From: Pseudocercospora fijiensis CIRAD86
Taxonomy: Eukaryota; Ascomycota; Dothideomycetes; Mycosphaerellales; Mycosphaerellaceae
DNA: 64,000 nucleotides
Direction of reading: 5' to 3'
Assembly: GCF_000340215.1 (NCBI RefSeq)
Contig: NW_006921538.1
Coordinates: 3,019,869-3,083,868, forward strand
Within the stretch, counting starts at the first letter, position 1. The number at the start of each line of letters is the position of its first letter. The position numbers and the translations under genes are program-made. Positions 1,941-21,209 of the stretch are shown one piece after another. The notes below the pieces were generated by a model, which did not search any database, was not told where the DNA came from, and worked only from the letters and a program-made list of their open reading frames with translations.

Positions 1941-2325
1941 ACTATAGAATAGAGCAGAACATAGGCAATCAACGAAGCCAATTCAACCGCCGGCAATGCA
2001 GTATTACGTAAGTAATCCACTGCGCTGTGCGTGATATCCAGGCAGTAGTAGGGTAGACGGTGGTCCGCGCGACTTGGCGTAGTGACTCTCGGATAGAACT
2101 AAGACATGGCCACGATTGCAGCGAGGACTTCACCAGCGTCACTTCCAAACGAATATCAAATAATGCGAAATCTTCGAACCTGCACGGCATCTCATCTTTC
2201 GATCGATCCATGCAGATCTTGGTCGCTTGATAGAACTACAGCTAGAGCAACAACATCAAAAGTATGGCAGAAAATGCTTTCGACGAGAAGAGATGGACTG
2301 TTTAGTATAGGTAGTAGTATGACCA
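1941..2325. other. Host 3' flank of the TrpRS-like gene
   Basis: Ordinary base composition, including CA and TG. It lies downstream of the minus-strand TrpRS-like gene and should hold its 3' UTR. No convincing gene: the short open frames show no recognisable protein features. Confidence 0.4.
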
Positions 2326-3513
2326 TCAGCGAATCAACCTCCGCGTCATCATCTCCTCCAGATAGTCGTCCGTGACCCGAACCCTGATTTCCTGGAACGA
2401 CAAGACAACCTGTTGTATTGCGACTATGAGAGACTCCCTGAGCTCAATCGACCGCACAGTGCCGTGCGCAAAGCCCATCTTGAGTCGTGCCAATTCTTCA
2501 TCATCCTCCAGAAAGAAGTTCAGATATTCGAAAAGCGTTTCCATCTTGAAGCCACCATCGTCGGGGAAGGCAAGCTCAATCTTCTGTCGGACCGATTCGC
2601 CATCATCTGCAAGGAAAACCGCGGACACCGGCACCGAAGCCGACATTTTTTCCTCTGGCCCTTGCAAAGACGGCAGCAGGCTGGAGTAAAGGAACGCAGC
2701 TCGTTTGAGTCCCAAAGCTTCGGCGTGCTTCCTCACTTCACTGAAATAGCCGTCGATGTCCCAAGAGCACACAATTAAACATCGCATGTTTTGCAGTGTC
2801 GCTCGGTCTTCCTCTGTAGTGTCGGGTCCGAGGATGCCAGGAAACGACGTTGCGAATGTGCCTGCGCTTTGAGTCGAGCAGCAATAGAACATGCCGACAT
2901 TGTGTCGATCCTCAAACCCAAGGGCTTGTTTGATGTCCGAGACTCTGATCATTCTGGCCACGCGGATGATGTTCTGATAGAAGGGCCCTCCCACAAAATC
3001 GAGATTCGAAAACATAAAAGTCTTCACAGGATCGAACGCGAAAGCTAGTATGTCTTTGGCGTTTTCCACTGTGTACCGCTTCACTGTGGATACATCCAAG
3101 GAAGCGGAATGCAAGAGTTTCATGTCATCGGTGAGCATCATGATAAGCGGAGCACCGAAGACATCTTGGAGCCATCTGATACTGCGTCAGTGCTAGTATC
3201 TCGGAGAGACAGATAGTCAAACATACTTTGTGAATTCGAACGGTATGGAGTGTCCGAGATGTAGACTGTCACTGCTTGGACCGCGGCCAGTGAACAAATA
3301 AAATGGTTCTTTTCGTTCGTATTTGTCGAGGATGGTCTCCAGGTCTCGGTGACTGAAGACGATACCCCTTCGTAAAAAGCGATGCGGCTTCCGGCCAGTC
3401 ACATCCGTGAAACGCTGAAGGAGGTCCTTGTCGATAAGACTTGCATGAGATTTGGTAGCAAAGGCGTGGACCTCACTGCTCAGTGGAATATTCATCTCGA
3501 CTGAAATGCCCAT
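2326..3513 (-). CDS. Tryptophanyl-tRNA synthetase-like paralogue, class I aaRS fold, altered Trp pocket
   Basis: Two exons (3513-3227 and 3175-2326) flank a 51-nt intron (3176-3226, GTATGT...CAG). The join restores FTKWLQDVF and gives 378 aa. Over its length it resembles eukaryotic cytosolic TrpRS, which charges tRNA-Trp. The ATP-site signatures are intact: [14 protein letters not shown] (HIGH motif, about residues 75-88) and KMSAS (272-276). Residues that contact tryptophan in the human enzyme, by my recollection of its numbering, are changed: Tyr159 to Phe74, Gln194 to Met109, Glu199 to Met114, and Gln313 (IDQDPYF) to Ile in WDIDGYF near 234-239. The C-terminal domain is shortened (the AFSGG/GGN segment is reduced) and there is no N-terminal extension. 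The frame is open and not RIP-damaged. Probably not the housekeeping enzyme: an extra copy for resistance, another amino acid, or tRNA-independent adenylation are all possible. Confidence 0.85.
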
Positions 3514-3888
3514 GGTGGTTAACGTGCGAATATATCTGGAAAGAACGGCACTGCGGCCAAGGTCTCTATCTGATTGCCAATCCCCGCGTAAAGACTATCA
3601 TTAAATACTCGTACCGAACCTCACGTAAGATCTTGGCGACTGACATGAAGCTTTTGTCAGAATGGCCCGAAGCGCTTCGGGGCACTCCAAGGTCCACTGC
3701 GTCTATATGGACTTCACACCTTGCGACTTTGCGATGCATCCCAGATCCCGGTATTGTGGTGAAGAATGTGCATATACTGCATAAAATGTCTACAACTAGA
3801 TGTTGGCTAGAGCATGAATGTCGGCAGCTCGAGGAGGGTCATGGTGCATAAGCAAGTCCTCCGATCGTCAAAACAGACGCAGCTTGGT
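3514..3888. other. Intergenic spacer between the regulator and TrpRS-like genes
   Basis: 375 bp of normal-composition host DNA between the stop of the bANK regulator and the start of the TrpRS-like gene, which lie head to tail on the minus strand. It should hold the TrpRS-like promoter and 5' UTR. No extra gene was recognised. Confidence 0.5.
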
Positions 3889-4919
3889 TCACATTGTTGC
3901 ATTTATGTTTGCTCCCCTTACGAACAAAAGCTGCAAAATCGCGTCTTGCCCATTCGCCGCCGCAATGTGTAATGGTGTCTGACCTCGGGCATCCTTCACC
4001 TCAAGCATAGCACCAGCGCCCAGCAAACTTCCGACGATACCATCATGACCTTGAGTCACCGCAATGTGTAATGCTGTCCGCCCATCTTTTTCCCGCACGT
4101 CGAGACACGCAGGACGCTTGACGAGTTCTTCCACGACGCTTTGCTGTTGGTTCCCTACGGCGAGGTGCAGGCTGGTACGGCCCATTGAGTCCTGGGCAAG
4201 CACATTGGAGTTTAATCGCAAGAGGAGCTGCACAGTAGACAGTCTGCCGCTCTCGGCTGCAATATGCAGTGCAGTCTTGCCATCTTGAGGTACGTCGGAT
4301 GCGGCGTGGCTACTTGGCTAGAGAAGACCAATGTTAGTGCTTGCTGATGAAGAAACAGATGTCTTGGTACGGTACTAACATCCTCAGTTGACCTCGGGCA
4401 GACCTGTGAACTAGCATGTTCACCATTTCCGCCGCCAATGCCATTCAGAATCAGAGCCACCGGGTATGCTTCGCCCAAGTCCCATGAGCCAAGGGACGGT
4501 ATGTCTTGGTCTGGGTTATAAGAAGTGTCTACAATCGCCGACGGTGTTTGGAGCCCGGTTCTACTAATCGCTATGGCGTTGTCGCGGCTTTCGCAGTAAG
4601 ACACGGGCTTTGTGCTCTCGATGGAACCTCCAAGCATCGGCGCGCCAAATGTTGGTATTGATAGTTGGTTGGAGACGGCCTGTTTGTTCGATTCATCCTG
4701 TTCCGACCCTGGTGATGCGCCAACGACGAGGGTCATCTTTCCCACGGTCATGGTATCTCTAAATAATTCCAGCTCTTCCATCCGAGACTTCAGTCGCTTG
4801 CCTGTATTGATTTCGTGTTAGTGACTTTTGGCCGAGATTCTCATGGCTTGCAACTCACGGTAGGCCCTTTGCGCAATGCGATTCTGGACTTTCTTCCGAC
4901 TTGCGGCATCTTCTACCAT
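3889..4919 (-). CDS. bANK-type transcription factor (bZIP basic region plus four ankyrin repeats, ToxE-like)
   Basis: Three exons (4919-4859, 4801-4380, 4317-3889) with introns of 57 nt (4802-4858, GTGAGT...ACAG) and 62 nt (4318-4379, GTTAGT...CTAG, branch CACTAAC). All joins are in frame and give 303 aa. Residues 7-24 hold the fungal bZIP basic motif (RKKVQNRIAQRAYRKRLK). It runs into RMEELELF without a clear leucine-zipper heptad. From about residue 170 four ankyrin repeats follow (DGKTALHIAA, MGRTSLHLAV, DGRTALHIAV, RGQTPLHIAA). A basic region without a zipper plus ankyrin repeats defines the bANK family, known from ToxE, the regulator of the HC-toxin cluster in Cochliobolus carbonum. Presumably a nuclear DNA-binding regulator of nearby genes. 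The 68-bp LTR of a TRIM starts only 12 bp upstream of the ATG, so the native promoter now lies about 12.6 kb away. Confidence 0.87.
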
Positions 4920-4931
4920 TGCGGTCCTTGT

Positions 4932-4999
4932 TGTTGTAAAAAGCGACGCCGCTCCTAACCCCAAGTCAGAAGTAGCCCATATAACTTTGTCGTACAACA
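4932..4999 (-). repeat. 68-bp LTR of the outer TRIM, bANK-proximal copy
   Basis: It starts TGTTGTAAAAAGCG and ends CGTACAACA. Next to it, inside the element, is a pyrimidine run (CTCCCCCTACTTC; purine-rich on the minus strand), so this is the 3' LTR of a minus-strand element. It keeps three C residues (AGTCAG, AGCCCAT) that are T in the distal copy, so it was less exposed to RIP. It reads open and in frame into the bANK coding region. Confidence 0.85.
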
Positions 5000-5210
5000 C
5001 TCCCCCTACTTCTTTACTTCGGGGAAGTAAAGAAGTCCTCTCGACTTAGGTATCCTTATCCCGCTACTAGCGTAGTATACTCCTACTCGCGGTATAATAG
5101 AAGTGCCGGCAACCTTTCCTAAACGGGCTTAGTTCTCTTCTTTTACGCTGTAACTACTACGCTATATCGCCGTCGGCGATCCCTCGAAAGCGCAAAGCCG
5201 GGCTTATAAC

Positions 5211-5606
5211 TATTGTAAATAATATAGATAAGCGGTAAACTATTAGAATTGCTTGCTATTCGAACAAAGGACTTACTAGCTACCTATACACCCTAGCGCT
5301 AAGAATTACAAGCTATTACTAAGCCGTAAGTAAATAATCTTTTAACTTCCTTCTCTTTCTCCTACCTACAAATCCGACTAGACTCGCACATTCTCGAGCA
5401 TTCTAACATATTACAAATAATACAGACAAGCGGTAAACCGTTAGAATTGCTTGCCACCCGAACAAAGGACTTACCAGCTACTTATATACCCTAGCGCCAA
5501 GAATTATAAGCTATTACTAAGCCGTAAGTAAATAATCTTTTAACTTCCTTCTCCTTCTCCTACTTATAAATCCGACTAGACTCGTATATTCTCGAGTATT
5601 CTAATA
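5211..5606 (-). repeat. Two head-to-tail 198-bp LTRs (2-LTR junction)
   Basis: Units 5211-5408 and 5409-5606 are near-identical and abut directly. Each starts TATT(G/A)(T/C)AAAT and ends CTAACA or CTAATA, i.e. RIP-altered TG...CA ends. On the right is CTCCCTAGCCTCTAC (purine tract on the minus strand) and on the left GGGCTTATAAC (primer site). Polypurine tract, LTR, LTR, primer site is the order at the junction of a 2-LTR circle. Unit 2 keeps more CA dinucleotides than unit 1. Confidence 0.7.
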
Positions 5607-5621
5607 CTCCCTAGCCTCTAC

Positions 5622-7491
5622 TTAGCTATCTAGTCGTAAACTAAATAGCTAAGTCCTAATCCTTCTTAATCGTTTTTATCCCTAGGACTCTTTTTACGTT
5701 TTCTTCGAACTTCCCTTTTATTAGGGGCTTAGTAAGGAAGTCCGCGAGTTAGTCCTTTATCGGAATATGCTTTATATCGACTAGCTTGTCCTCGACTAGT
5801 TCCTGTACGTAATATACTACTACGTCGATATGTTTCGTTCTCGAATAAAATTCCGGATTTCGTACTAAAGCGATAGCCGCCTTATTATCCCCGTAGATAA
5901 TCGTAGGTTCTTTAAAGTCGTCTTCCGTAAGGTATCCGACTTGCTCGAGGAAATTTCGGATCTAAATAGCTTCTTTTGCGGCGTAGGATAGCGCTAAGTA
6001 TTCGGCTTTCGTAGTGCTAGTCGTTACGGACCTTTATAGTTTAGTAGACTAAGATATAGGTCCTCCGGCTAGTAGGGATATATATCCTATCGTTAACTTC
6101 CTAGTCGAGTCCGCCGCGTAATCCGAATCGGTATAGATAACCGGTAAACGAGTAACTAAAGTACTCGTATTGTTTTCGTTCTTCGGGATAGGACTGTACT
6201 TTATATAGTAGTCCCGAGCGTTCCCTAGGTATCTAAGGCCGTAGATACCTCCGTCGTAGTATCTCCTAGCCGGATTTACCGTAGATTAGCTTAGTCTTTA
6301 CGTTAGAAAAGATATATCCGGCCTCGTAGCTCGTACGGTCTAATTGAGTTTTCCGATAAGTCGTTAGTATCTCTAGACGTCTACTACCTCCTCGTCCTTT
6401 ATAATAGGTAGTAGATTCGTATATCCGTTTGCCGGAGTCGATACTTAGAAGGTTTCGTTTAGATCTAAGCCCTCTTCTCTAAGCGTATTTTCGATATAGT
6501 GCCTTTAATCTAGTAGTATAGATCCGTCGGCCTCTCTCTCGATTCGTCCGCTTAGTATAAACTTAGCGGGACCTAGATCCTTTATTTCGAACCTCTATAT
6601 AAGCCCGTCCTTTAGCGGTTTAACCTCCGCTTCTATCTTCGCTAGTGTAGTAGGATCGTCGACGTATAACGCGACTATTAGCGTATAGTCGCTATTAACG
6701 AAGACCGATTGATCCGTAGGTATAGCGTAGAGGTCGTATTCTTTAAAGAAGGCCGTAATAGTCTTATTCTAAACTCGTCCGGATTGTTTTAGTCCTAGTA
6801 CTCCTTTTAGGAGTTTAAGTACTTTATTAGTTCCGGGAACATCTAGGCCTTCCGGGATAGCTAGGTAGACTTCCTCTGTTAATTCTCCTAGTAGGTAGGC
6901 ACTTACTACGTCTATTTGGAATATAGTAAGTCCTTTACTAGCGGCGATAGCTAGGAGAAGGCGTAGGCTTTCGAGACGTATTACCGGAGAGAACGTCTTA
7001 AAGTAATCGATTCCGTAGCGTTGCGTAAAGCCCTTTCCTACTAATCTCGCTTTAAATTTATTAATTTGTCCGTTCGGTAGTATTTTTACTTTAAAAACCT
7101 ATTTCGGAGTAATAACGTTTATTTGCCCTTTTCTATCCTTTAGCTTAGAATAGTCGACAATCTCGTAGGTATTATTAGCCGTTAAGGACTCGATATGTTC
7201 TTTAATAGCGTCTTTCTACTGTCGGGAGTAAGGGCCGGTAATAGCTTCCGTATAGGTCTCGGGGATAGGTATTTCGAAGGCCTTTCGATAGTCGACTTTT
7301 AGAGCTACTAGCCCTATCTCGTCCCTTAGTCTCTTTAGTGCTTTAGGGACCCTCGTAGTCCTTCGTAGTCCTCCTTCGTTTATATTCGAATCCGTAGGAG
7401 TAGTAGAAGCCGTAGGAGTAGTAAACCTTTCGTCGTTTTTATTTAAATCGTTATCTTCGTCTTATAGTTTCGGAGTATTGTCTTCGGCTTC
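5622..7491 (-). pseudogene. Copia-1 pol, RT and RNase H part, decayed
   Basis: On the minus strand the RT active site reads VALYVDDP (YVDD codons at 6655-6666). RNase H reads EPTIIYGDNKAAIALV (about 5865-5910), a classic copia signature. Many TAG codons interrupt the frame. It continues beyond Gypsy-1 into the integrase/gag part at 14,596-17,300. The retained YVDD shows that decay here is by scattered nonsense changes rather than loss of the active site. Confidence 0.85.
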
Positions 7492-7496
7492 GGAGT

Positions 7497-7684
7497 TGTA
7501 AGAAGGGTTATGTTAGTAGGTAGATAGGGTAGTAGTAGATATAGTAGTATTCGATAGAGATCTAGGAGGAGAAGGAGGAAGGCAGGCTAGTTAGCCTAAC
7601 GCTAAGCGCTAAGCCCTGCCTAAGGCACTAAGACCCTAGCTTTACTCGAGCTAGTTATATACTAATTACGTATAGCCTCTAATA
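7497..7684 (-). repeat. Gypsy-1 LTR, left copy (3' LTR)
   Basis: 188 bp, matching 14403-14590 with scattered C/T and G/A differences of the RIP type. Confidence 0.9.
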
Positions 7685-8633
7685 TACGCTCCCCTTCTAA
7701 AGGCCGCGCCCTCGTAGCCTATCTATGTTCTAATCTTAACCTCTATAGCCGCTAACTTAGCATATTAACTAAGCTGCTTAGCCGCGCTAAATTAAACGCT
7801 TAACTACCTAATTATATAACTAAGCTAAACCTTACCTTCTAATATAATGTCTAACTCTAACTGCGCTATCCTTATATATAATAAAGTAAAGCGATATATA
7901 TCTATAAGAATTAAGGGCTATCGACTAATTATAATATAGGCTCGTCTTCCCTACTATAATAGGTAGACGTACGAGGTATTATAGTACTACCTCCGTTCTA
8001 AGTAATGTCGTTTCGAGTTCTTTGCGTCTACTCTTAAAAGACCTAGCAATGTCCGCTCCGAGGGTTGTTCTTGTTATTACGAGGGCTATTATTTACTATC
8101 GTAGTTTCACTAGCCCTAATTAGTTAGGTTTAGTAGCCTTTAATTGTTAATCTTATCTTACCTTTTTAGAAAAAACACAGTTCGTCTAGTTTCTATAGAT
8201 AAAGGCTATTATAAGTGTAATAGTTAAGGTTCGCCTTACTTAAAGGGTTAGAAAGATTAAGGAGTAATCTATTGTCCGCAAGATCGACCCCGGCTAGCTT
8301 AGCTCTATATTTTTGCCCTTAGTTAGTCTATTAATCGCTTAACCTTTTTAGTCCCTAAGCCCTTCGAACGGCTTAACCTTTTTAACCTAGTCGGTATAGT
8401 ACGGTTTAGCCTTAGGCCGCGGTATAGGTAAGGTTACCCTCGTAGGTATAGCGATAATAGTAGGTAATGTTAATAATAGCGGCGCTAGCCGTCTTAGCGC
8501 TAACTTTACCTTACTTCTAATTTCCTTCTTCGACTAGCAATACTTTAACTAGTAATATACTCTATAATACTATTACTAATATAGCCGCGCCGTCCCCCCG
8601 GCCGTCGCTAGCTTATAGCGCGACGCTATCGTT

Positions 8634-8655
8634 ATTATTATTATTATTATTATCT
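8634..8655. repeat. (TTA)n microsatellite inside Gypsy-1
   Basis: About seven ATT/TTA units in the 3' non-coding part of Gypsy-1. Gypsy-2 lacks the run at the matching place, so it is specific to this copy. Confidence 0.6.
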
Positions 8656-8929
8656 GCGCGCGTGCTATCCCCGCCGACCGCCTAGGCCTTAGGGCCTCGA
8701 TAGAATAAAGGAATAAAAGGGGGACCCGAATACTAAGAGAAGGGCCTTATTGCGTTAGCAGAGAGGTAAAATCCTTAAAAGAGTAGGCGATTAGTTAGCG
8801 CGTTATAGCGCGCTTATTAACGGTCGGTACGCGTTCGCTATAGTAGTATAGTATTATTGTCCTAGTTTGCCGGCCTCTAATTAGTTAGCTAATAGCACCC
8901 TAGGGGTAGCATTGTTCCTAGGCGACATT

Positions 8930-11900
8930 ATTTAGCCTTCTTCTTGTTCTTTATACTAGTCTAATACTTATCTAACAACTTAGTTATATCCTCGAAGGAA
9001 CCTTTAGCTTCCTACGAGTTCTATTTAGGTAAATAGCCTTACTATCTTGATAGGTATTCCTTCTTGCCTTGCCTAGTCTAGTGCTTTAGGATGCGTTCTA
9101 TAGACTATAGCTCTTTACTATCGGCTAAGACTTCTTCTAACTTAGTAGGCGCTTTATCGCCTTCGCGTTAATAGTATAGTTTAAGAAGGGATATATAAAA
9201 GGTATTACAGATAGTATAGTACAGTAGGAGCTATAACTAACAGGCCTATACGGAAGAGCCCTTAACTTCTCGAATGCAGAATAGGCTAATATATCTTAGT
9301 ACGAGCTTGGGCCTTGTTTTGCTATTAGGGGATAGGTGTTTGCGGATACGGAGGTTCTTCGTACTAAGTATAACTATATCGCCTTGTTTGAAGGTTATTA
9401 GTATATAGCGCTTATCGTAGTAGGTCTTTTAGTACTTTTAAGCCTTTGTTAGCTTCTTAGCTATCTTAGTATAGATTTCTCGTATCTTTTAAACCCTCTT
9501 AATAGCCGCTAGTATCTTAGGTTACCTGCTTCCCTTTCCTTACGCTCGGCCTCGAGCGATAGGGGGTCTTATAGCATAGTAGCGTTCTAGCCTATTATAG
9601 CTATATACGGTAAGACCTTAGTTAACGAGTAGACACTGTTATTATATACGAATTCGGCTAGTTATAGGAGGTTAACCTAGTCGTTAGGGTTCTTATTAAT
9701 GTAGCTACGCAGGTACTGCTATAGGGTAGCATTTTGCCTCTCGGTTTAGCTATCTATTTGTAGATAGAAGGCTATAGATAGCCGATGCTTAAGTCTTAGC
9801 TATAGGCATATCTCGCTCTAATAATAGGATATAAACGTCGAGCCCCGGTCGGAGACTATCCCTTTAGGGGTTCCCTAATAGCTATAGAAGATATTGTTCT
9901 ATAGGGCTTTAGCCACATTAATAGCAGTCTAATCCTTCCGCGCCGGGATATATCGAGCGCCTTTAGTAAATCGATCTACTATAACAAGGATAGCATTAAA
10001 GACGTCCTTGCTACCCCTATGCTTAGTAGGCGGAAGGCCTATAATAAAGTCTATTATTAGCTCTACAAATAGCTTCTTTAGAATAGGAAGTAAAGACAAC
10101 TCGCCGAATAGTAGGTATCTTAGTGCTCTAACTCGTTAATATACGGCATACGTGTTTACGTAGTCCTTTATATCCCGCTTACTATTTAGCTAGTAGTATA
10201 TACGCGATAGTAGCTCGTGCGACCTCTCTATACTATAGTAACTAGCAAGCTTACTATTATAGTGTCGCTTAAGAAGCTCTTGTCGGATCGAATACTCGGT
10301 AGGGATATACAATCTGCCTTTATAGCGCAAATAGCTATCGGCATTAATCGACTAATTCTTGCTAGATCTGGTTTTGCGACTACTAGTAAGCTAATCTATA
10401 CGGACTGTAGTAAAAGCGTCCCTTTACTAAGCGCGTAACAGCTCGTTTATAAAGGCTTAGCTATCTCCGTCCGTAAGTTCGCTTAATAGCACCCTCGCTG
10501 TCTTACGTAGTACGTACTATATGTATCTAGTAGTACTAGCAGCCGGATTAACTGCATTAGTACTCTAATCGCTGTTACTATATATAGCGATATCGACTAG
10601 GGAGTTATTATAGCTCTTTCTATTAGTGTTATTAGCCCTTGCCTTAATACGTACTATTAATATAGCAAGAGCATTAACATGCTTTAAGCCGTCGCGGAGT
10701 CCGGTAAGCCGCTTATTCTACGCTTACTTATTAATAATACGGGCTATAGCAATCTTATACTATAGGGTTAGAAACAAAGAATTAATATGTTAGGTCTCGC
10801 TATCGTAATTAGGTCGCCTCGATAGGCTATTAGTAGGGTTGCTTACGCCTAGCCGATATAATATATTAAAATCGAACCTAGCGAGATAGACGGCCTATCT
10901 AGCCTATCGACCTATAACCCTAGTAACCTTCGTAATTCTACGGAGGTTGTTATAGTCCGTATAGACCTAAATAGTGTGCTATATACTATCGAGATAGTAG
11001 CGCTAGTACTTAAAGGCTTCTACGATTACTAAGAGCTCTTACTCGTAGGTCTTATATCGGCGCTCTATATCGATTATCTTTCGCGAGAAGAAGGTAGTCG
11101 GGTGCTAGTAGGTGTTATTAGCCTATTGTAACATAATAGCTAATATAGCGAACTATAAAGCGTTAGTCTCAATACGGATCTGCCTACTTAGTACGAAATA
11201 GTGTAGTAAGGGGACTTTAGTAAAGCGTTGCTTTAAACCGTTAAAAGCGGCTTATGCTTTGTTAGTCTATTTGAACTCTCTAGATAGGTTAGCCTTGGTT
11301 TTAGTAAGCTTAGTTAGGGGCATTACGTATCGTAAGTAACCCTCGATAAATCGACGGTAGAAGTTAGCAAAACCTAGGAATAATTAAAGCTCCTTAATAC
11401 TAGTAGGCGTTAGCTACTTAGTAATAGTTTTAATCCAATTAGGATTAGCCTTAACACCCTTAGTTAATACGAGGAAGCTAAGGAAGGGCACTTCTATAGC
11501 AGCAAAGGTGTATTTAGAAGACTTGCAATATAAGCTATAGGCCCGTAGGCGGTCGAGTACCTTACGGACTATAGCCTAGTACTCCGCAATATTAGGTAAG
11601 TATATATAAACTAGGATATCGTCTAGGTAAACTATACAAAGGTAGTCTAATAGGCCTAATAGGGCCCGATTAATATAGGACTAGAATATTATAGGGGCAT
11701 TAGCTAGCCTAAATAGTATAACTAAATACTCGAAATAGCTATAGCGAGTGCGGAAGGCTGTCTTCTATTTATTACCCTTACGAATACGAATGCGGTAATA
11801 GGCGTCCTTAATGTCTAATATAGTATAGAAGTAGGCGCTAGAAAGGCGATCGAGGGTCTTATTAATAAGCGGAAGTAGATAGCGGTCCTTAATAGTAATA

Positions 11901-14160
11901 GTATTAAGCCTATAATAATCGATATATAGGCGTAGGCTACTATCCTTCTTTAGTACGAATAGGATAGGTGCACTAGCAGGGCTGTTACTATACTAAATTC
12001 GACTATTAGCTAGGTTCTTATCTAGGTACTTACGTAGTATAGCAAGCTCGCGTTTACTAAGGTTGTAAAGCGGCCTAAAAGGAACCTCCTTGCCCTATAT
12101 AATATCGATCTTATAGTCCGTCTCTTTAAATATAGGCAATGTCGATACTAGGTAGTGTTTAAATACATTAATATAGGTTTCTCGAATAGGCTATAGTATC
12201 CGAGCGAGCTAATTAGGGTCTATGCTATTAGGGGGCATAGGTTTATCGTTATCTCTACCGAGAAGATTAGCAGTTAGGTTAGCTAAGGCAGAGACTAGTA
12301 TTAGGTTGCTAATAAACAGGACCCTAATATCGTTAGGGCACTCGCTAACGTCGATATACTTAATATCCTCCTTCCTAGCGATTCCAAATCGCTACTATTA
12401 GAGGCCTAAGTCTATAGTTATAGCGTAGTGCTTAAGGATAGGGTTGCTAATAACAATAGTAGCTCCCCTATATAGGTTGTCTATATCTACTATATAGGTA
12501 GTAAAGTCTAGTAGGCGCTTATTTCCGAGGTCGTCCTTTAGAACTGTAGGAATATAGTAGGCCCTATAGGTTAAGTGCCGAGCATTATTAAACTAAGCAA
12601 GAGTTAGTAGGTTAGCCCTATTTAATTATCGAAGATCTAATTGCTTAGCTAAGCGATAGCTAATAAGGGTACTAACTGAATTTCCTAGATCTAGTGTAAC
12701 CTTAGTCTTATAGTTAGTTCTGTATGTGTCCTATATAAGGCAGGTACGTATAATAGCTAGTATAATGTCGATGGTTTTACGCCGTACGAGGCTAATAGTT
12801 AGTATAGCGCCTAATCTTTTTTCGACTAATTAGAAGGGCCGATAGGGGTAGCATTAGCGGCTAAAAGGTTTTTTCGGTGCTTAGAGGCAGTACGATTAAC
12901 TCGGGCCTAGTCTCGAGGCCTATTATATTAGCCTAGTAAATAAGTAGTACTATTATAGTTAAAGCATTTCAATCCGGTTAGGAGGTTGCTATAGCTACTA
13001 CTATTGTTAGTTAAGCAGTTAGTATTATAAGGATACGAGCCCCTTCTACGGCCCCTATTACGGCCTCCTCTATACAGCCGTCGGCTACGGCCTCTTCTAC
13101 GGTTATTGTTACCGTTCCTATTATTAGCACTATTGTTTTAGTAGGAACCTTAGTTTCCTCCGCGGGTACTACGGTTGCCGCGGTTAGTACTAGCTAGTCG
13201 AATCCTCGATTCTAGTCGTTACTAGAGCTAAATAGCTCGTTTAGCTATTTCTACTTCGACTATAAATTAAATGCGTATTAGATTAGCCTATTTAAACACA
13301 CGGCGGCGGTCCAATTTAAGGACTAATTCCTATCTCAATTTAGGGCGTATTTCGGAGATCTAGATAGAATTAGTCTTAGCCGGAAGGTTATCTTCGAGGG
13401 TCTTTAAATAGGCCTTAAATAAGCGAGCCGATTAATTAGTCTTTTGTTTAGCTCGAAGGTACTAGTCCTAAGCGTGTTGTTGCCTTAGTATAGGGTTTCT
13501 AAGGGTATCTAGTATAATGGTTTTATAGGTTTGCTACTAAATAGCGGTCTAATTATTAAGGGAGTTAAAATAGTTATCCTAGGTGCGCTTTAGGTCTCTA
13601 TTAATGTACTATATAGCATAGACGACTAAGGAATAGTTATCTAGCAGCGCTCTCGGTACATTGCGCTAGTTAAGCTTATAGTTACGAATATAGTCGTTAT
13701 ATTGCTTTCGACTAGAGCTATTAAACACAGTACAATCCTTGAGTTTAGTATCCTTCTTTTGAATAGTTAGTAAGGAAGGCCCTACTACTAGTTTAGTATT
13801 AGTTATTAGGGCCTCCTAAAGGCGGCGAAGCTCGAGGAGGTTATCCTTTAGCTACTACTCTTAACGTAAAGTAGCGAGCCTGTTTTAGGTAGCTTCTTAA
13901 AGTCTCGCTACTAGCTAGGGGCTAAAGGCTAGTTAGCTATATCGACGGTTAACAATATTGCTAAGAATGTCGTTAACGGGCAACGATAGGTTATCCCCTT
14001 CGATTATAGGTTCTTTAGTAGGCCCTCTAGTAGGCTCTTTAGCGGGAACTATACTACTAGCGTTGTTATTGCTAGCACTGCTAGTAGCGCCGCGGTTGTT
14101 ATTATTGTTTCGTAATAAGCCGGCTATTGTAATAAGGGGTAGTACTAATAATGTATCGTA
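8930..14160 (-). pseudogene. Gypsy-1 gag-pol, decayed
   Basis: Minus-strand reading. Gag has an Arg/Gly/Asn-rich tail and a degraded zinc knuckle (LKCFNYNSTTYLL, near 12,940). RT has an intact active site VYLDDILVY (YLDD at 11618-11629). Integrase shows LIIDFIIGLPPT (about 10,020-10,065). A chromodomain-like tail (about 8,960-9,115) reads KEYL...GYLP...NS.EA, matching the YLVKWKGYP...ENSWEP pattern of chromoviruses. Stops are nearly all TAG/TAA at Trp or Gln positions. Confidence 0.85.
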
Positions 14161-14402
14161 GCCCCTTATAGTACGGATATAGCGGAATTAGTAGGTATCG
14201 GCCTAGTACGATTAACTTAGTATAATAGGCCGTATAGAAGGCCTTGCTTAATAATTAGTATGGTTGTTTTAGTAGAATAGTACGTATAGGTCCCGTTCTT
14301 CGGGCGTAATATAGTTAAATCGATAGTTTTCGTAGCTATACCGCTAAAAGCTTAAAATAAGGACTATCTAGCTGCTACTCTTAAAGGGTAGATCGAATAC
14401 TA

Positions 14403-14590
14403 TATAAGAAGGGTTATATTAGCAGGTAGATAGGGTAGTAGTAGATATAGTAGTATTCGATAGAGATCTAGGAGGAGAAGGAGGAAGGCAGGCTAGTTAG
14501 CCTAACGCTAAGCGCTAAGCCCTACCTAAGGTACTAAGACCCTAGCTTTACTCGAGCTAGTTATATACTAATTACGTGTAGCCTCTAACA
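14403..14590 (-). repeat. Gypsy-1 LTR, right copy (5' LTR)
   Basis: 188 bp. Its outer end CCTCTAACA keeps the canonical CA, while the inner start is TATAAG rather than TGTAAG, a G-to-A change. Confidence 0.9.
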
Positions 14591-14595
14591 GGATT

Positions 14596-17300
14596 CTCCC
14601 TCTATTTCTTTAGATTCTCCCTTATCTAGGAGATCGATATCGTTATCGTTGTTATCCGAGTCTATAATAGGCCGTAGAGTAGGTAGTTCCTCTTCGGATA
14701 GTTACGTAGTAGGCTACTTCCCTTAGTCGATTCGTCGAATTTAACGCTAGTATAGATCCCGATAGCGTTTGTCTTAGGATTATAGATCCTATACTGTTTC
14801 GTAGACTTCGTATATCCGACGAAGATTCCTAGAAATACCGTCTTTTCTAGCTTATCTTTCCTTTTCTCCTTAGGAATAAACAGATAGGCTAGATAGCCGA
14901 ATACCCGTAAATGTTCTCCGCTAGGCTTTCTTCCGGTATAGAGCTCCTCGGGAGTTATATCCTTTCCTTTAATAGGTAGCCTATTATGTGAATAGGTAAC
15001 CGTATAGGCCGCTTCGCCCTAAAATTGTTTAGGTAATCCGGATCCTTCTAAAGCCGCCCGTACCTTAGTTATAATAGTACGGCTTTGTCTCTCTACTACC
15101 CCGTTTTATTCTAGAGTATAGGGCGTCGTTGTTTCGATTCGTAGTCCCGGATAGGCCTTAAGAGCTTTAATAAGCTCCGGAGCGTTATCGATTCTTACGG
15201 CCTTTAGTTTCCTCCCGGTTTCGAGTTCGGCCTCGTTTTTCTAAGCCTTAAAGGCTTCGTATACGTCGCTTCGGTAGCGAGTAAGACGGATATCTAACCG
15301 TCTCGTAGCGTCGTCCGTAATCGTTAGTATATACCTATTTCCCCCTAAGGTACTATACTTATACGAACCCTAAAAATCGATATATACCCTATCTAGGCAA
15401 TAGTCTGCCTTTTCGGGTTCTTCTCGACTTGATCGTCTATCGGACTTCGTAGTAATATAAGTCTCGTAAGATATTGTAAAAAGCGACGCCGCTCCTAACC
15501 CTAAGTTAGAAGTAGCTTATATAACTTTGTCGTATAATACTCCCTCTACTTCTTTGCTTTAGGGAAGTAAAGAAGTCCTCTCGACTTAGGTATCCTTATC
15601 CCGCTACTAGCGTAGTATACTCCTACTCGCGGTATAATAGAAGTGCTAGTAACCTTTCTTAAACGGGCTTAGTTCTATTCTTTTAGTTTTACGCTATAAC
15701 TACTACGCTATATCGCCGTCGGCGATCTCTCGGAAGCGTAAAGCCGGGCTTATAACTGTTATAAAAACCGACGCCGCTCCTAACCCTAAGTTAGAAGTAG
15801 CTTATATAACTTTGTCGTATAATATAAGACTTATTTAACGTCGAAAGCTCCGGGACTCCTAGTAGTACTTTATATACGTTTCGTTGTTTTTCGTCTCCTA
15901 GATATCCTAGGCGTCGATACTAAAGTAGCGTAGTACCTTTAGTCGTAGTAGTAGCTACTCTCGAAGTCTCGATAGATCCGGATTCCTTTAGAATATAGGA
16001 CCTTCCGACGCGTACTCCTTTTGCTAGTTCTTCGTTTTCTCTTCGAAGTATAGCCTCTTCTTTAGTAAATAGAGTCGTAATACCTCGTTTCGAGAGTTAG
16101 CTTATCGAAAGCAGGTTATAACCGATCTCGGGTACGTATATAACGTCCGGAATCGTAGTCGGAATTCCCTTAAACTAGACGAGGATTATACCGGATCCCG
16201 CGATCTTTATTGTTTTGCCGTTCGCTAGAGTAACTTTTCCGGTTATTTCCTTATAGTCCGTAAAGTAGTTCTTGTCGTTAGATATATGTCTAGTGCATCC
16301 GGAGTCTAGGATCTAATCCCCTTTATTAGATAGTCGAGTCGTAGAATCGATAGCTATCTAAGCCGCGATCTTAGATTCCTCCTTATTATTTTCTTGGATT
16401 TTTCCGTTCTTTTAGTCCTATTTGTATTTCCTATAGTCCCGTTTAAAGTGCCTAATCTTTTGGCAATAGTAACACGTCTTTCCTTTAGCCTTATTAGGCG
16501 TATTTTACGTATTGCCTTTCTTTCTGTTACCGGCCTTATCTTTCGCCGATTCCTTAGTATATCGGGCTACTACTTTATCGCCTTTAGAAGTAGTAATAGT
16601 ATATTCAACGTCCCGTAGTCGTTGAACTAGTTCTTCGTAGGAAAGAGTAGATAAACCGGCCGCCTTTAAGGCGAATATAGTAGACGAATACTCTTCTTCT
16701 AACGACGATATAAGGACTACTTTCTTAGAGGCGTCCGAAGGAACTTCGTCTTTATCCGCGGCCTTAATCTCGGATTAGATTTGCGTAAGAGCTAAAGCCG
16801 TAGTATCGATATCCTTAAGAGCTTTAAAGGAATAGAAATAGGAGAGTAGCGTCGAAACCCGTTCCTTTATCGATACTTCGCTTACTTCCTTTATTTTATC
16901 GATTACCTCCCTAGTCGTACGTAGTCCTAGGAGGTATATAGGCTTATCCCCGGCCGTAGACTTAATAAACGCAACTACTTTTACGTCTTCTTTTTTAGCC
17001 TCTCTTACTTTAGCCGAATCTTAGCTTATAGCTTCCGGTATACCGTTCCTATACTTCTAAAGGCCTTATCCGGATAAATAGTCTTAAATTAGATCGATCT
17101 AGATAGTATAGTTCTCGGTACTAAGTTACGGAATTCCCTTTACCGTACCGATAGGCGTCTTAGTAGTAGATATCTTTATTGTTAGATTTTTCGACTCGTA
17201 CTAGTTATATCGTTATTATTTTTAGATCGTTTGGTTCGTATTAGTCGGTTCTTTTCGCCTATAGACCGGCGTCTATAGCGGAGTAATAACCGTTATCTTA
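14596..17300 (-). pseudogene. Copia-1 gag and integrase part, decayed
   Basis: On the minus strand, a degraded zinc knuckle (CYYCQKIRHFKRDY, about 16,425-16,470) marks gag. Further on, the copia integrase motif TPYTLE*NGVVERQS (about 15,075-15,125) matches TPYTPEQNGVVERQN with a Gln-to-stop change. The 353-bp TRIM at 15,472-15,824 interrupts the integrase. The coding part begins some 100 bp inside the right LTR68. Confidence 0.8.
15472..15824 (-). mobile_element. Complete 353-bp TRIM element
   Basis: 68-bp terminal repeats at 15472-15539 and 15757-15824, with a 217-bp internal segment. Perfect 5-bp target duplications TAAGA (15467-15471, 15825-15829) prove a separate insertion into Copia-1. 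The internal segment starts next to the left LTR with CTCCCTCTACTTC (purine tract on the minus strand) and ends next to the right LTR with GGGCTTATAAC (RIP-altered half-tRNA-iMet site). It has no coding capacity, so it must have moved with proteins from another element. Confidence 0.87.
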
Positions 17301-17425
17301 TTGTTGTTCGAAGTTAGTCGCTTTCTTCGATTTGCGGAGTAACGTCGGATAAGGTTTAACCTTACGCAAGCGGATTGCCTGATCGGGTAATTTCTCGAAC
17401 TTTCTTGTTTCTTCACTTGCGTTCC

Positions 17426-17436
17426 GGGCTCATAAC
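17426..17436 (-). promoter_or_regulatory. Primer-binding site for half-tRNA-iMet
   Basis: GGGCTCATAAC on the plus strand equals the anticodon-stem/loop of initiator tRNA-Met (GGGCUCAUAAC, anticodon CAU). Directly inside the LTR in element orientation it reads GTTATGAGCCC. Drosophila copia and yeast Ty5 use this half-tRNA priming mode. A RIP-altered version sits at 15746-15756 in the small TRIM, and another at about 5200-5210. Confidence 0.7.
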
Positions 17437-17504
17437 TGTTGTAAAAAGCGACGCCGCTCCTAACCCCAAGTTAGAAGTAGCTTATATAACTTTGTCGTAC
17501 AACA
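17437..17504 (-). repeat. 68-bp LTR of the outer TRIM, distal copy (5' LTR)
   Basis: Same sequence as 4932-4999 except for three C-to-T changes in a CpA context. It is followed by the target duplication CTTGT. On its inner side lies GGGCTCATAAC, which reads GTTATGAGCCC in element orientation. Confidence 0.85.
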
Positions 17505-17509
17505 CTTGT

Positions 17510-18520
17510 TACAGCAACTATAGATGTCGAAGATTCCAAACTTCAGGCATAAATCGCTTCCACGATCAACGTTTCTACCCGAAGTACCTCACCGGGGAAG
17601 AAGATAGGCTTGTACGACAAGCCAAGGCGAGTATACAGTAGCGTGACATGGGCGTGTCGCTTCCGATTGCCATTGCCGCTATTGTAATACAATTCTGGGC
17701 GAGAGCCGCGCGCAACTGCGACACGAAGTTGTGCCACGAAGACGGAGGCGGAGGCAGGGTTAGAGGACGCGCCTTGTGGCAGATGCGCCGGTAAGGCACA
17801 GCTCGTTCGTCGCACCAAATCACCTCGCGTACATACGGGCATACCTAGCGTGCATACAGTATACTACGGACGTGGAGCGCGAGAACATTGCTCATGCGGG
17901 CAGTCAATGGCGCACATGAGGCTTGGGCAGCTGAGTGGCAGTACCACAGGTACTACAGTAAGCACCGGTAAGGCTGAATGATTCGAGATCCTTTGCCCCA
18001 CGGCCTCGGGAGGAATTCAGCTCCTTGCGCGTTCGTGGCGTTCGTGGCGTCCCTACATCTGGCAGATCACAGCTCGGCACTGGCTGGAACGGGCCACCCT
18101 CGTTTACCCGTTGGCCGCTCGTAGCCTCGTACGCAAACAGCCCTGCTCGTCGCCGCCTCAACACAGGGCATCGGGTTTGACCACGTTAGCGCCGATGGCT
18201 GACATGTAGTCAAGTTGAAAGCAACTTCACTATAGTGTTTCACGTCAGTATAGATGCCCCTCTCGTAAAGCGGCGGGGTACAACCTGCTTGAGGATTGAT
18301 GATATGATGTATAAGAAAAGCGCTTGCTGTCCCATGATATTGTCCTGGCGGTGTCTCCTGGCGGCACCGAATAAGCAGGAAACACCACATCAGCCTCTGT
18401 TCCTCCATCCCTTGCTTTCCCTTTGCAACAGATCAGACTCAAATAGTCTCCTGGCGGCCATCACAACATCACTCACAACACCCTCACCCACAACGCCATT
18501 GCCATTGCCGCCACCAAACC
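17510..18520. other. Host intergenic region, former divergent promoter of bANK and SDR
   Basis: Normal-composition DNA directly outside the target duplication. Without the composite it would join to the bANK ATG, giving about 1 kb shared by divergent bANK (minus) and SDR (plus). The last 70 bp are CA/C-rich (CATCACTCACAACACCC), as in many fungal 5' UTRs. Several overlapping short frames on both strands show no protein features. No gene called. Confidence 0.5.
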
Positions 18521-19540
18521 ATGCCTCATTCCAGCGCTCCCTACCAGCCGTACGCCGAAAGATACGTCGATGGGCCTGCATCTGGTCCAACGGCCGCAGA
18601 CATTGTGAAAGATCTTGGCCTCGAGGGCAAGCTGCAAGACAAGGTCATCTTCATCACTGGAGCATCGGCCGGTCTCGGTCAAGAAACCGCTCGCGTTCTT
18701 CACACCACCGGCGCAAAGCTCTACCTCACAGGTCGTGACCTCGCCAAAGGCCAGGCAGTGGCGGATGCACTCGTCGCAAGCAACCCCAGCGGCCAAAAGC
18801 CCGTCTTGATCGGCTTGGAGTTGGACAACCTCGAGAGCGTCAGGAAAGCAGCCAAGGAGTTCCTCGATCAGGAGAAACGCCTTGATATCCTCGTGCTGAA
18901 TGCTGGTATTATGGCAGTCCCCGAGGGCCGCACCGTCGATGGCTTCGAGACTCAGCTTGGCACCAACTACTTTGGCCACTTCTTGCTCTTCCACTTGATC
19001 AAGTCCACCTTACTTGCCGCCGCTACTCCACAGTCTCCCAGCCGTGTCATCACACTCTCCAGTGCAGGTCACAAGGCCGGAGGCGTCTTCTTCGATGACC
19101 TCGACTTGAAAAGGCAAGGCTACAACCCCATGGTCGCTTACGCCCAAAGCAAGACCGCCACTATCCACTTGGCGAACTCCATCGATCGTCACTACAGCGC
19201 ATCCGGAATTCGTGCTGTTTCCGTGCACCCAGGCATGATCTTCGAGACATCACTCGGCCGCCACATGTCGCAGGAAGAGATTGCTGGATTCGCTCCCATG
19301 GCACCTTTCGCGAGACCTCTTGCGCAGGGCGCAGCGACCACTGTCTGGGCGGCGCTCGATCCTCACTTCAACAAGCAAGGTGGTGTGTACCTCGCCGATG
19401 CTGGTGTCTCAAGCGCCGCTACCGCAGATGAGCACTTTGCTGGACCTGGATATGCTCCTCATGCCTTTGATAAGACGGCCGAGGAGAAGTTGTGGAAGCT
19501 CAGCTTTGGTGCCGTCGGTTTGTCGGAGGATGGTAACTAG
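18521..19540 (+). CDS. Short-chain dehydrogenase/reductase (retinol-dehydrogenase/WWOX-like SDR)
   Basis: Intronless frame of 339 aa, started at the ATG in AAACCATGC. Classical SDR features are in order: an N-terminal extension of about 40 residues, the cofactor motif TGASAGLG (46-53), NAG (127-129), catalytic Ser in LSSAGHKAG (180-181), and YAQSK with Tyr207 and Lys211. The spacing to C-terminal VHPGMI suits the NAD(P)-dependent Rossmann fold. The Arg in TGRD after the second strand (near 71) favours NADPH. Family members oxidise or reduce alcohols, ketones or lipids, and the substrate cannot be told. It lies divergent from the bANK regulator and upstream of the broken membrane-protein gene. 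Codon use is normal with no RIP damage. Confidence 0.9.
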   Translation: MPHSSAPYQPYAERYVDGPASGPTAADIVKDLGLEGKLQDKVIFITGASAGLGQETARVLHTTGAKLYLTGRDLAKGQAVADALVASNPSGQKPVLIGLELDNLESVRKAAKEFLDQEKRLDILVLNAGIMAVPEGRTVDGFETQLGTNYFGHFLLFHLIKSTLLAAATPQSPSRVITLSSAGHKAGGVFFDDLDLKRQGYNPMVAYAQSKTATIHLANSIDRHYSASGIRAVSVHPGMIFETSLGRHMSQEEIAGFAPMAPFARPLAQGAATTVWAALDPHFNKQGGVYLADAGVSSAATADEHFAGPGYAPHAFDKTAEEKLWKLSFGAVGLSEDGN

Positions 19541-21209
19541 ATGCCTTGTTCCGATGTTCTTGTCCCAGGGTTCGCAAGAAGGAGGCTCACACTGCTAGCT
19601 GTCCTTTGTTGGAGGGTTCAAGGGGGGTGTCTGCTGCCTAGCGCCATGACCTTTACCCACATGAGCTACCGCAGAGTGCATCAGCGCTCTCTTCTGAGCA
19701 CTCATCTGATGGTTTCTCTTTTCGAAATCATACTGTATGCAGACTATCTAGCTTATGACAAAGCCTGGCCATGCCCAGGCTATCTCTACTTCGGGTTTCT
19801 CTATGCTCTCGATCTCCTGCTAGTCTTTGCAATCTTGCTCGCCGTCCCGACTCAGAAGAGTCGCAGAAAAAGTATGCTAGGGTTTGGTGCCAGAATATTT
19901 CTTTCGATCAGGCCGCATCTAAGCTTCGTCCTAGAGATGCCATTTACCGGGCCATCTTTGATGACTGTTTCTTGATAATTAACCCCACACCTGAGACTTT
20001 CCGTAGAGTCTGGAATGCTCTCAACGGCCGCACTACGACGCAGGCTGCCGATATATAGGTCGTGTTGGCGAGCTGTTTTGGCTTCAAACATCCTCAGTTT
20101 CGCAAACTCGATGCTTCTGCAAAGATGGAGCGAATCGTGCTCAGTTCTGACATCCTGCCACTGCGGCTGTTCTTCAACACTGGGTCAAGGTTACGACCAA
20201 CAGAACATCATTACAACAGATGGGTGCCAACGGAGTTGGGTGACTATATCGAGAACGGCGCAAGCATGGTTCTATTCGCTGACTTCGACGAGGGTCAACA
20301 GAGAGACTGGAAGGTTCCATTGTTTCTTGAGGGAGACATTGAGGTCATCTATGTGGACCATCCTGTGCCAAAAGTGCAGGAATATACCCTACTTGACGGA
20401 GGATATACATTTCATGTTCTCTGCTTTGTCGATGAGTCGGATGAATTTGCCTTCGAGCAGGATGGCGACAAATGTATTAGTACCTGTTTTTTCTTCGAGG
20501 AGAGACCGGATGATCTCAGCCCGGTCTCTCGCGGTGCTTGTCTCTACGTGACCCCTGGTCAACCATTCGTTGAGGATGTGGAATGTCTGTCCAGACTTGA
20601 AATGATCTACTATTGCCTTGTTCTACTCACCAAATCTGTGTCAGATCCTCGACGAGGTGGAGATGTCGCATTTGCAGGACGGTGCTTGAAGCACACAGTG
20701 GAAAACGCTTGTGCAGGCGAGGAGGATTTCAATGGGGCACATCTATTCGAAATGAAGTGCAGTAAGTCTCTATCACCGCGTTAATGCTATGGGGAGCACT
20801 TTGCTGATGTTTGCCACATAGCGCCGATCCCTGAGAACGAGGAACTTGACAGACAGCCATCCGGCCTAGAATTCTCGGAGAGCAGACAGAAAACGGCTAT
20901 CAAAGTTCTCGCAGTTGTACCTCTCCTCTCGATTGTTGCCATCAGCCTCGTTGCAGTGGTATTCATGTTATACGAAGCTATCCTACAAAGCGAAACCTCG
21001 AATTTCCGAAAGGTGGTATACTATGCTTTTCCGGAAGGTTGAGAATGCCAAGACTCCTGGTTTTTTAAGCCTTATAGAACTCTAAGATTAGACTTCCTTA
21101 GGCCTGTTGTGGTTACTATTATACCGCTTATTAATCCAGCCTCTTTAATATGTATTATTACGCCTTATTGCCGCTAGAGGTTGCTATTCTTATCGCTATA
21201 TTAATAGCA

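What the first reader, a model, noticed from the sequence alone, without database searches (positions are those of the whole stretch)
4927..17509. Copia trapped inside a TRIM as if a 2-LTR circle recombined through the shared primer-binding site
Minus-strand order: LTR68, PBS, gag-pol, purine tract, LTR198, LTR198, PBS, TRIM interior, purine tract, LTR68, bounded by one CTTGT duplication. An ordinary insertion would leave one LTR198 at each side of the Copia with its own duplication. Here both 198-bp LTRs abut, and the Copia body starts at the PBS next to LTR68. One crossover between the PBS of a 2-LTR Copia circle and the PBS of a resident TRIM (shared GTTATRAGCCCGG) gives exactly this order. 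Template switching between co-packaged RNAs at the primer site is an alternative. Either way it is a documented-looking route for a TRIM to capture a full-length element.
Basis: partly seen in the sequence, partly recalled or inferred. Interest (0 to 1): 0.78.

Follow-up and report, generated by a model that had tools for sequence, protein, structure and literature searches.

The report
Two retrotransposons fused at primer site
In a fungal genome a full-length Copia retrotransposon and a tiny non-coding retrotransposon are spliced together exactly at the short site where both start DNA copying, most likely because their copies were mixed up while being made; it is a rare, clean fossil of a known kind of accident.

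Summary
On the minus strand: CTTGT, LTR68, PBS, Copia interior, LTR198, LTR198, PBS, TRIM interior, LTR68, CTTGT. The genome is very probably Pseudocercospora fijiensis and the Copia a Sagui relative: published primers, amplicon size and element size fit locus L022. Ordinary copies differ: 28 of 30 Copia 5' ends follow a Copia LTR, and 27 of 30 3' ends precede a single LTR. The window is the only tandem and the only LTR68-Copia joint. The two LTR198s differ by 21 transitions, no transversion, no indel, so they probably come from one cDNA. Of 8 TRIM interiors, 6 follow LTR68 and 2 follow Copia LTR sequence: the window and L028, whose TRIM and LTR are of other subtypes. Copia-TRIM joining at the PBS therefore probably happened twice. 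My preferred route is intermolecular second-strand transfer in one particle, giving two reciprocal hybrids inserted together. No second copy of the whole composite was found, so nothing shows that it moved again.

The parts
4927..4931 (.). Target-site duplication CTTGT, left copy
   Evidence: Read directly; identical to 17505-17509
4932..4999 (-). LTR68 of the TRIM, 3' LTR of the composite
   Evidence: 65 of 68 identical to the 5' LTR68, transitions only; TGTTG...CAACA ends
5000..5210 (-). TRIM interior, with purine tract AAGTAGGGGGAG (5011-5000) and PBS (5210-5198)
   Evidence: one of 8 TRIM interiors found; shares with L029 the absence of 4 nt present in L028 and L030-L033
5198..5210 (-). 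PBS GTTATAAGCCCGG between LTR198a and the TRIM interior (recombination joint 2)
   Evidence: complementary to the tRNA-Met anticodon arm apart from one G-to-A of RIP type
5211..5408 (-). LTR198a, Copia LTR next to the TRIM PBS
   Evidence: ordinary LTR of the Copia family elsewhere in the genome
5409..5606 (-). LTR198b, Copia 3' LTR, abutting LTR198a with no extra base
   Evidence: 21 transitions, 0 transversions, 0 gaps to LTR198a; only tandem among 30 Copia 3' ends
5607..7496 (-). Copia interior, 3' part (RVT_2 piece at 6772-7098); its purine tract (5623-5607) has a private 5-nt insertion
   Evidence: Pfam RVT_2 E=1.7e-30; purine tract compared with 25 other copies
7497..14590 (-). Nested Gypsy-type element with about 184-bp LTRs; target copies ACTCC (7492-7496) and AATCC (14591-14595)
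   Evidence: L013 and L014 read ACTCC once at this site. Type rests on a weak RVT_1 match (22.3 bits, below the cut-off 29.6) in 1 of 2 pieces given
14591..15471 (-). Copia interior, middle part (SH3-like piece)
   Evidence: Pfam SH3_retrovirus E=2e-23
15472..15824 (-). Second, complete TRIM inserted in the ordinary way (TSD TCTTA at 15467-15471 and 15825-15829)
   Evidence: an internal control for a normal insertion
15825..17423 (-). Copia interior, 5' part (gag side; Pol_BBD piece at 16178-16312)
   Evidence: from base 236 on it mostly shares diagnostic sites with L009/L010 rather than the L013 group
17424..17436 (-). PBS GTTATGAGCCCGG between LTR68 and Copia gag (recombination joint 1)
17437..17504 (-). 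LTR68, 5' LTR of the composite
   Evidence: the only one of 30 Copia 5' ends that follows LTR68
17505..17509 (.). Target-site duplication CTTGT, right copy
   Evidence: Read directly

Best explanation
The composite is a Copia-TRIM recombinant joined twice at the tRNA primer-binding site, and it most likely formed during reverse transcription, before integration. Shown: the order of parts, both PBS joints, the perfect LTR198 abutment, and one 5-bp duplication outside two LTR68s. Inferred: a Copia RNA and a TRIM RNA, which share PBS and purine tract, were copied in one particle. At second-strand transfer each LTR-PBS strand annealed to the other molecule's PBS. This gave two reciprocal hybrid DNAs: LTR68-PBS-Copia-LTR198 and LTR198-PBS-TRIM-LTR68. 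The two LTR68 ends (one U3 end, one U5 end, the normal pair) were integrated together, leaving CTTGT on both sides. The two free LTR198 tips were then ligated, as in a 2-LTR circle junction. Repeat-induced point mutation later damaged the whole, and a Gypsy-type element and another TRIM landed inside it. My confidence that it is a PBS-mediated Copia-TRIM recombinant of some route is about 0.93; the figure below is for this particular route.
For: Both joints lie within a 22-nt shared stretch (9 nt of U5 tip plus the 13-nt PBS, transitions allowed). The PBS is the second-strand transfer site of LTR elements (established knowledge, recalled). TRIM and Copia share the tRNA-Met anticodon-arm PBS, the purine tract (AAGTAGRGGGAG) and TGTT...ACAACA-type tips, so use of the same machinery is plausible. 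LTR198a and b differ by transitions only, 0 transversions in 198, while each differs from 18 other Copia LTRs by 1-9 transversions; this fits one Copia cDNA. A second hybrid with the same joint exists at L028 (C11:1231809): 33 nt of Copia U5, then PBS, TRIM interior and LTR68. It has the 4 nt that the window TRIM and L029 lack, and the shorter Copia U5, so it is probably a separate event, and it looks like the remnant of one of the two predicted hybrids. Two of 8 TRIM interiors are hybrids. Perfect LTR68 ends with one TSD fit integrase action on LTR68 ends.
Against: No observation separates this from a 2-LTR circle recombining with a resident TRIM. The route needs two cross-transfers and one end joining, and in retroviruses the second-strand transfer is mostly within one molecule (recalled, no call). 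Neither free hybrid was found intact: L028 keeps only 33 nt of Copia LTR and abuts an inverted, 3'-truncated Copia. That neighbour's U5 plus PBS matches the remnant at 95.7% over 46 bp in inverted orientation, so a local rearrangement could have supplied the L028 joint. The mirror product (two LTR68s abutting between Copia LTRs) was not seen in the loci fetched. The 3' LTR68 has three states that I saw in no other LTR68 copy (by eye), so the two LTR68s are not as alike as a fresh product would be unless mutated since. Zero transversions between two LTRs is not exclusive proof of one cDNA: within 9 ordinary elements the two LTRs differ by 0-6 transversions.
Confidence: 0.47

Rival explanations
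1. One reading: a TRIM was already resident at this site (TSD CTTGT). A 2-LTR circle of Copia cDNA recombined with it once inside the shared U5-tip/PBS stretch, inserting gag-pol-PPT-LTR198-LTR198 between LTR68-PBS and the TRIM interior.
For: One crossover gives exactly the observed order. Abutting LTRs with no lost base are the expected circle junction when the PBS directly follows the LTR, as it does here. The 22-nt shared stretch is the longest that I noticed between the two elements (the purine tract with LTR tip shares about 16-17 nt, by eye).
Against: 22 nt with two differences is little homology for a chromosomal crossover. The L028 hybrid shows the PBS joint without a same-strand Copia in the 14.3 kb examined to its left, which the circle model explains only with a further loss. 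I saw no joints at the purine tract.
Confidence: 0.38
2. Double-strand-break repair: a break in a resident TRIM near its PBS was repaired by copying or ligating extrachromosomal Copia cDNA (a circle or an end-to-end dimer), guided by the short shared stretch.
For: Same sequence outcome. Filling of breaks by retrotransposon cDNA is known in yeast (recalled, no call).
Against: Both joints are clean within the PBS with no filler or loss; this is a variant of the circle model without separate evidence.
Confidence: 0.08
3. Ordinary nested insertion of Copia into the TRIM, followed by rearrangement (loss of the 5' LTR198 and gain of a second 3' LTR198).
For: Nested insertions are common here; two sit inside this very Copia.
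Against: No Copia LTR-plus-duplication at either side. 11 of 13 ordinary copies with both ends fetched have an exact 5-bp TSD. At least two precise extra steps would be needed.
Confidence: 0.03
4. Assembly error joining a Copia and a TRIM.
For: Repeats of this family are numerous (30 Copia 5' ends and 30 3' ends examined), and reads were not available.
Against: The two tandem LTRs differ from each other at 21 sites, one TSD bounds the whole, the near flanks are not RIP-mutated while the composite is, and a second PBS hybrid exists elsewhere.
Confidence: 0.04

Closest known systems
Template-switching LTR retrotransposon complexes of grasses (Sabot and Schulman 2007, PMC1950507; whole text read)
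   Same: Two interiors in one insertion bounded by one 5-bp TSD and by two alike outer LTRs; explained there by switching between co-packaged RNAs
   Different: Those have three LTRs and are attributed to switching between R regions of closely similar elements. Here there are four LTRs of two families, the two inner ones abut, and the joints are at the PBS
2-LTR circle junctions of retrovirus and retrotransposon cDNA (papers seen in search listings only)
   Same: Two LTRs of one element abutting tip to tip
   Different: Here the junction lies inside a chromosomal composite between two PBS joints
Tandemly arrayed TRIMs and Cassandra arrays (PMC4717578, PMC7215508; passages read)
   Same: Multi-LTR arrays that include TRIMs
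   Different: Those share single LTRs within one family; no autonomous element of another family is included in the passages seen
Sagui LTR-Copia of Mycosphaerella fijiensis (PMC3562529; passages read)
   Same: Same family: both published primers match L022 exactly on contig C20 (paper: Scaffold 20), 643 bp apart as published, 4,738 bp between LTR ends as published. Four other fetched loci (L013, L014, L016, L020) also match both primers exactly
   Different: The window copy matches each primer with 2 mismatches, has 198-bp LTRs and is heavily RIP-mutated; the passages seen name TRIM only as a class and mention no composite
Helenus, fungal TRIMs with a tRNA-like LTR (PMC10886601; passages read)
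   Same: Short TRIM, 5-bp TSD, anticodon-loop tRNA-iMet PBS common in fungal members, probable Copia dependence
   Different: No box A plus box B above chance in LTR68, so it is not filed as Helenus

Membership tests
Ty1/Copia LTR retrotransposon (Sagui relative) | Copia-type reverse transcriptase RVT_2 | tested here: met
   Piece 6772-7098, E=1.7e-30; in all 3 of 7 Copia pieces given matched a Pfam family (RVT_2, SH3_retrovirus, Pol_BBD), 4 matched none
Ty1/Copia LTR retrotransposon (Sagui relative) | Family identity to published Sagui | tested here: met
   Primer pair exact in L022 (and in L013, L014, L016, L020), 643-bp spacing, contig C20; 4,738 bp counted by hand from the LTR ends shown
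Ty1/Copia LTR retrotransposon (Sagui relative) | Own LTR at both ends with a 5-bp TSD | tested here: not met
   Window copy has LTR68 at 5' and a tandem LTR198 at 3'; ordinary relatives: 11 of 13 with exact TSD (read by eye; misses L009, L025)
TRIM | Two short LTRs, PBS, purine tract, no coding interior, under 1 kb, 5-bp TSD | tested here: met
   For the family: about 350 bp, interior 211-215 bp in the window (no ORF of 100 aa in it); exact TSD in 4 of 6 LTR68-led interiors (window inner, L029, L030, L032; L031 not evident, L033 interrupted), by eye
Template-switching complex (Sabot and Schulman) | One TSD outside alike outer LTRs | tested here: met
   CTTGT twice; LTR68 pair 65 of 68 identical, transitions only
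Template-switching complex (Sabot and Schulman) | Single shared internal LTR between two interiors | tested here: not met
   Two abutting internal LTR198s
2-LTR circle joined to a TRIM by recombination | LTR-LTR junction without loss, both LTRs from one cDNA | tested here: met
   No lost or extra base at the junction; 0 transversions, 0 gaps between the LTRs; one cDNA is inferred
2-LTR circle joined to a TRIM by recombination | TRIM present at the site beforehand | not testable with these tools
   Needs other isolates
Helenus TRIM | tRNA-like pol III boxes in the LTR | tested here: not met
   LTR68: box A 2 mismatches (500 of 500 shuffles as good), box B 4 mismatches (332 of 500). TRIM interior plus LTR: a box A match without mismatch (153 of 500 shuffles as good), box B 4 mismatches (495 of 500)

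The most novel reading that the evidence does not exclude
The composite and L028 are fossils of reciprocal second-strand transfer between different LTR retrotransposon families sharing one primer site. Two hybrid cDNAs made in one particle were integrated together through their matching outer LTR ends, and their inner LTR ends were ligated. This would make the PBS a recurrent crossover point through which a non-coding TRIM and its presumed helper exchange LTRs.
Probability: 0.42. Interest if true: 0.66.

Novelty: new variant of a known kind. Interest (0 to 1): 0.5.

Why it matters
It shows LTR exchange between a presumed helper retrotransposon and a non-coding TRIM at a base-precise point, probably twice. 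That gives one concrete route by which TRIMs could acquire new LTRs, or helpers could acquire TRIM LTRs, and it supports the view that Sagui-type Copia moves this TRIM. It also makes a testable distinction: a plain TRIM at the same site in another isolate means chromosomal recombination with cDNA; its consistent absence favours a reverse-transcription product.

Tried and rejected
Ordinary nesting was rejected (no Copia LTR with duplication on either side, LTR198s abut). An unrelated tandem repeat was rejected (the 198-bp unit is the Copia LTR). A Copia family with 68-bp LTRs was rejected (0 of 28 other 5' ends with a readable LTR; one more, L050, is cut before the PBS). I first took the bases between the two LTR198s for leftover circle-junction nucleotides; with the true LTR ends (TGTTAG...ACAATA, PBS directly after) there are none, so that idea was dropped. 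I looked for a breakpoint between Copia subfamilies inside the body: from base 236 it mostly follows L009/L010, and before that no site tells the groups apart. Dating the joints by LTR divergence is not usable, because nearly all changes are transitions, mostly in RIP context. I looked for the left half of the L028 hybrid in 14.3 kb of C11 to its left and did not find it. Paper searches for PBS-mediated or tandem-LTR recombinants gave no description of this structure among the listings and passages I saw; the library holds open-licence papers only.
Full report
What was checked. The window is G000:C7:3019869-3083868 of a 73.9-Mb genome in 30 contigs. On the minus strand I read CTTGT (17509-17505), LTR68 (17504-17437), PBS (17436-17424), Copia interior, LTR198b (5606-5409), LTR198a (5408-5211), PBS (5210-5198), TRIM interior (to 5000), LTR68 (4999-4932) and CTTGT (4931-4927). 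The near flanks are not RIP-mutated (TpA/ApT 0.58 at 2000-4926, 0.70 at 17510-20000), while every part of the composite measured is (1.6-4.0); so is the rest of the window, 20000-64000 (1.78).

Identity of the players. Of 7 Copia pieces between stops, 3 match Pfam: RVT_2 (E=1.7e-30), SH3_retrovirus and Pol_BBD. The published primers of the Sagui LTR-Copia of Mycosphaerella fijiensis (PMC3562529, passages read) match L022 on contig C20 without mismatch, 643 bp apart as published, and the element spans 4,738 bp between its LTR ends, as published for the copy on Scaffold 20 (length counted by hand). L013, L014, L016 and L020 also match both primers exactly, so the primers mark the family, and size and contig number point to L022. 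The window copy matches each primer with two mismatches. The 68-bp LTR belongs to a TRIM of about 350 bp. Eight interiors were found, in a search that scored 20 of 20 candidates, and 4 of the 6 that follow LTR68 show exact 5-bp duplications, read by eye. It lacks tRNA-like boxes above chance, so it is not filed as a Helenus TRIM (PMC10886601, passages read).

Normal copies as controls. Of 30 Copia 5' ends examined, 28 follow Copia LTR sequence, one (L050) is cut before the PBS, and one, the window, follows LTR68. Of 30 Copia 3' ends, 27 precede one Copia LTR with no second one adjacent in the stretch fetched, two (L072, L074) show none, and one, the window, precedes two. The 5' ends come from a search that scored 40 of 51 candidates, so some may be missing; the 3' ends come from one that scored 30 of 30. 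Of 13 copies with both ends fetched, 11 have an exact 5-bp duplication; L009 and L025 do not (by eye). The TRIM at 15472-15824 (TSD TCTTA) and the Gypsy-type element at 7497-14590 (ACTCC, with AATCC on the other side) show that ordinary insertions keep their marks in this same Copia.

One Copia or two. LTR198a and LTR198b differ at 21 of 198 positions, all transitions (16 in RIP context, 5 not), with no gap. Each differs from 18 other Copia LTRs by 1 to 9 transversions. Within 9 ordinary elements the two LTRs differ by 0 to 6 transversions. The simplest reading is that both come from one cDNA and were then mutated separately, mainly by RIP. Body and LTRs look most like the L009/L010/L011 subtype.

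The joints. The Copia and TRIM sequences agree, allowing transitions, over 22 nt: the last 9 of U5 and the 13-nt PBS, with two strict differences. Both joints fall in that stretch. The PBS pairs with CCGGGCTCATAAC of a host tRNA-Met (CAT) gene that I read as the initiator. The shared purine tract AAGTAGRGGGAG and the TGTT/ACAACA tips suggest that the Copia machinery handles both.

A second hybrid. At C11:1231809 (L028) a TRIM interior with LTR68 downstream follows 33 nt of Copia U5 and the PBS. Its TRIM has 4 nt that the window TRIM and L029 lack, and its Copia U5 is of the short subtype, so it is most likely a separate event. Upstream it abuts an inverted Copia whose 3' part is missing; the rest of the hybrid was not found in 14.3 kb to the left. 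The inverted neighbour's own U5 and PBS match the remnant at 95.7% over 46 bp, so a local rearrangement is not excluded. A search with this joint scored 32 of 32 candidates, and only L028 itself and the window span it. So 2 of 8 TRIM interiors carry Copia LTR sequence at their 5' end.

Mechanism. Two routes give the same letters. (i) Crossover of a 2-LTR Copia circle with a resident TRIM. (ii) In one particle, second-strand transfer between molecules, giving LTR68-PBS-Copia-LTR198 and LTR198-PBS-TRIM-LTR68; their LTR68 ends form a normal U3/U5 pair for integrase, and their LTR198 ends are ligated. I lean to (ii). The PBS is the natural transfer point, a second hybrid uses it, and route (ii) accounts together for outer LTR68 ends with a single duplication and a perfect inner LTR198 pair. 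The lean is small. The step from shared signals to co-packaging is inference.

Against my reading. The 3' LTR68 has three states that I saw in no other LTR68 copy (by eye), and the purine tract of the composite Copia has a 5-nt insertion absent from the 25 other copies compared, of 29 other 3' ends; I explain neither. No intact free hybrid and no mirror product was seen in the loci fetched. Reads and other isolates were not available.

Literature. Template-switching complexes with one TSD and three LTRs are described in grasses (PMC1950507, whole text read). Recombination between co-packaged family members is reported for Onsen (PMC5668417, passages). TRIM arrays with shared LTRs are known (PMC4717578, PMC7215508, passages). 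I saw no report of a four-LTR, two-family composite joined at the PBS in the listings of searches or the passages read, within an open-licence library. Hence: new variant of a known kind.

Noticed in passing
5607-5623: Purine tract of the composite Copia carries a private 5-nt insertion (AAGTAGAGG-CTAGG-GAG); the 25 other Copia 3' ends compared lack it. Unexplained.
   Followed up: partly
5160-5210: The TRIM leader continues its complementarity to the tRNA-Met beyond the PBS after a TTT bulge (GCGCTT block), which the Copia leader lacks (by eye).
   Followed up: partly
4932-4999: 3' LTR68 has three A-to-G states (TATGGG, CTGAC) that I saw in no other LTR68 copy fetched (by eye).
   Followed up: no
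L028:5109-5350: Inverted Copia LTR joined at its U3 tip to the inside of an oppositely oriented Copia LTR remnant, as autointegration or insertion into a hybrid would give.
   Followed up: partly
L009:4782-8750: Copia copy about 26 kb left of the composite has both LTRs but no matching target duplication (AAAGA/GGAAG) and an internal deletion.
   Followed up: no
5211-5606: RIP-type differences between the two LTR198s are patchy: mostly one copy is changed in the first 125 bp and the other in the rest.
   Followed up: no
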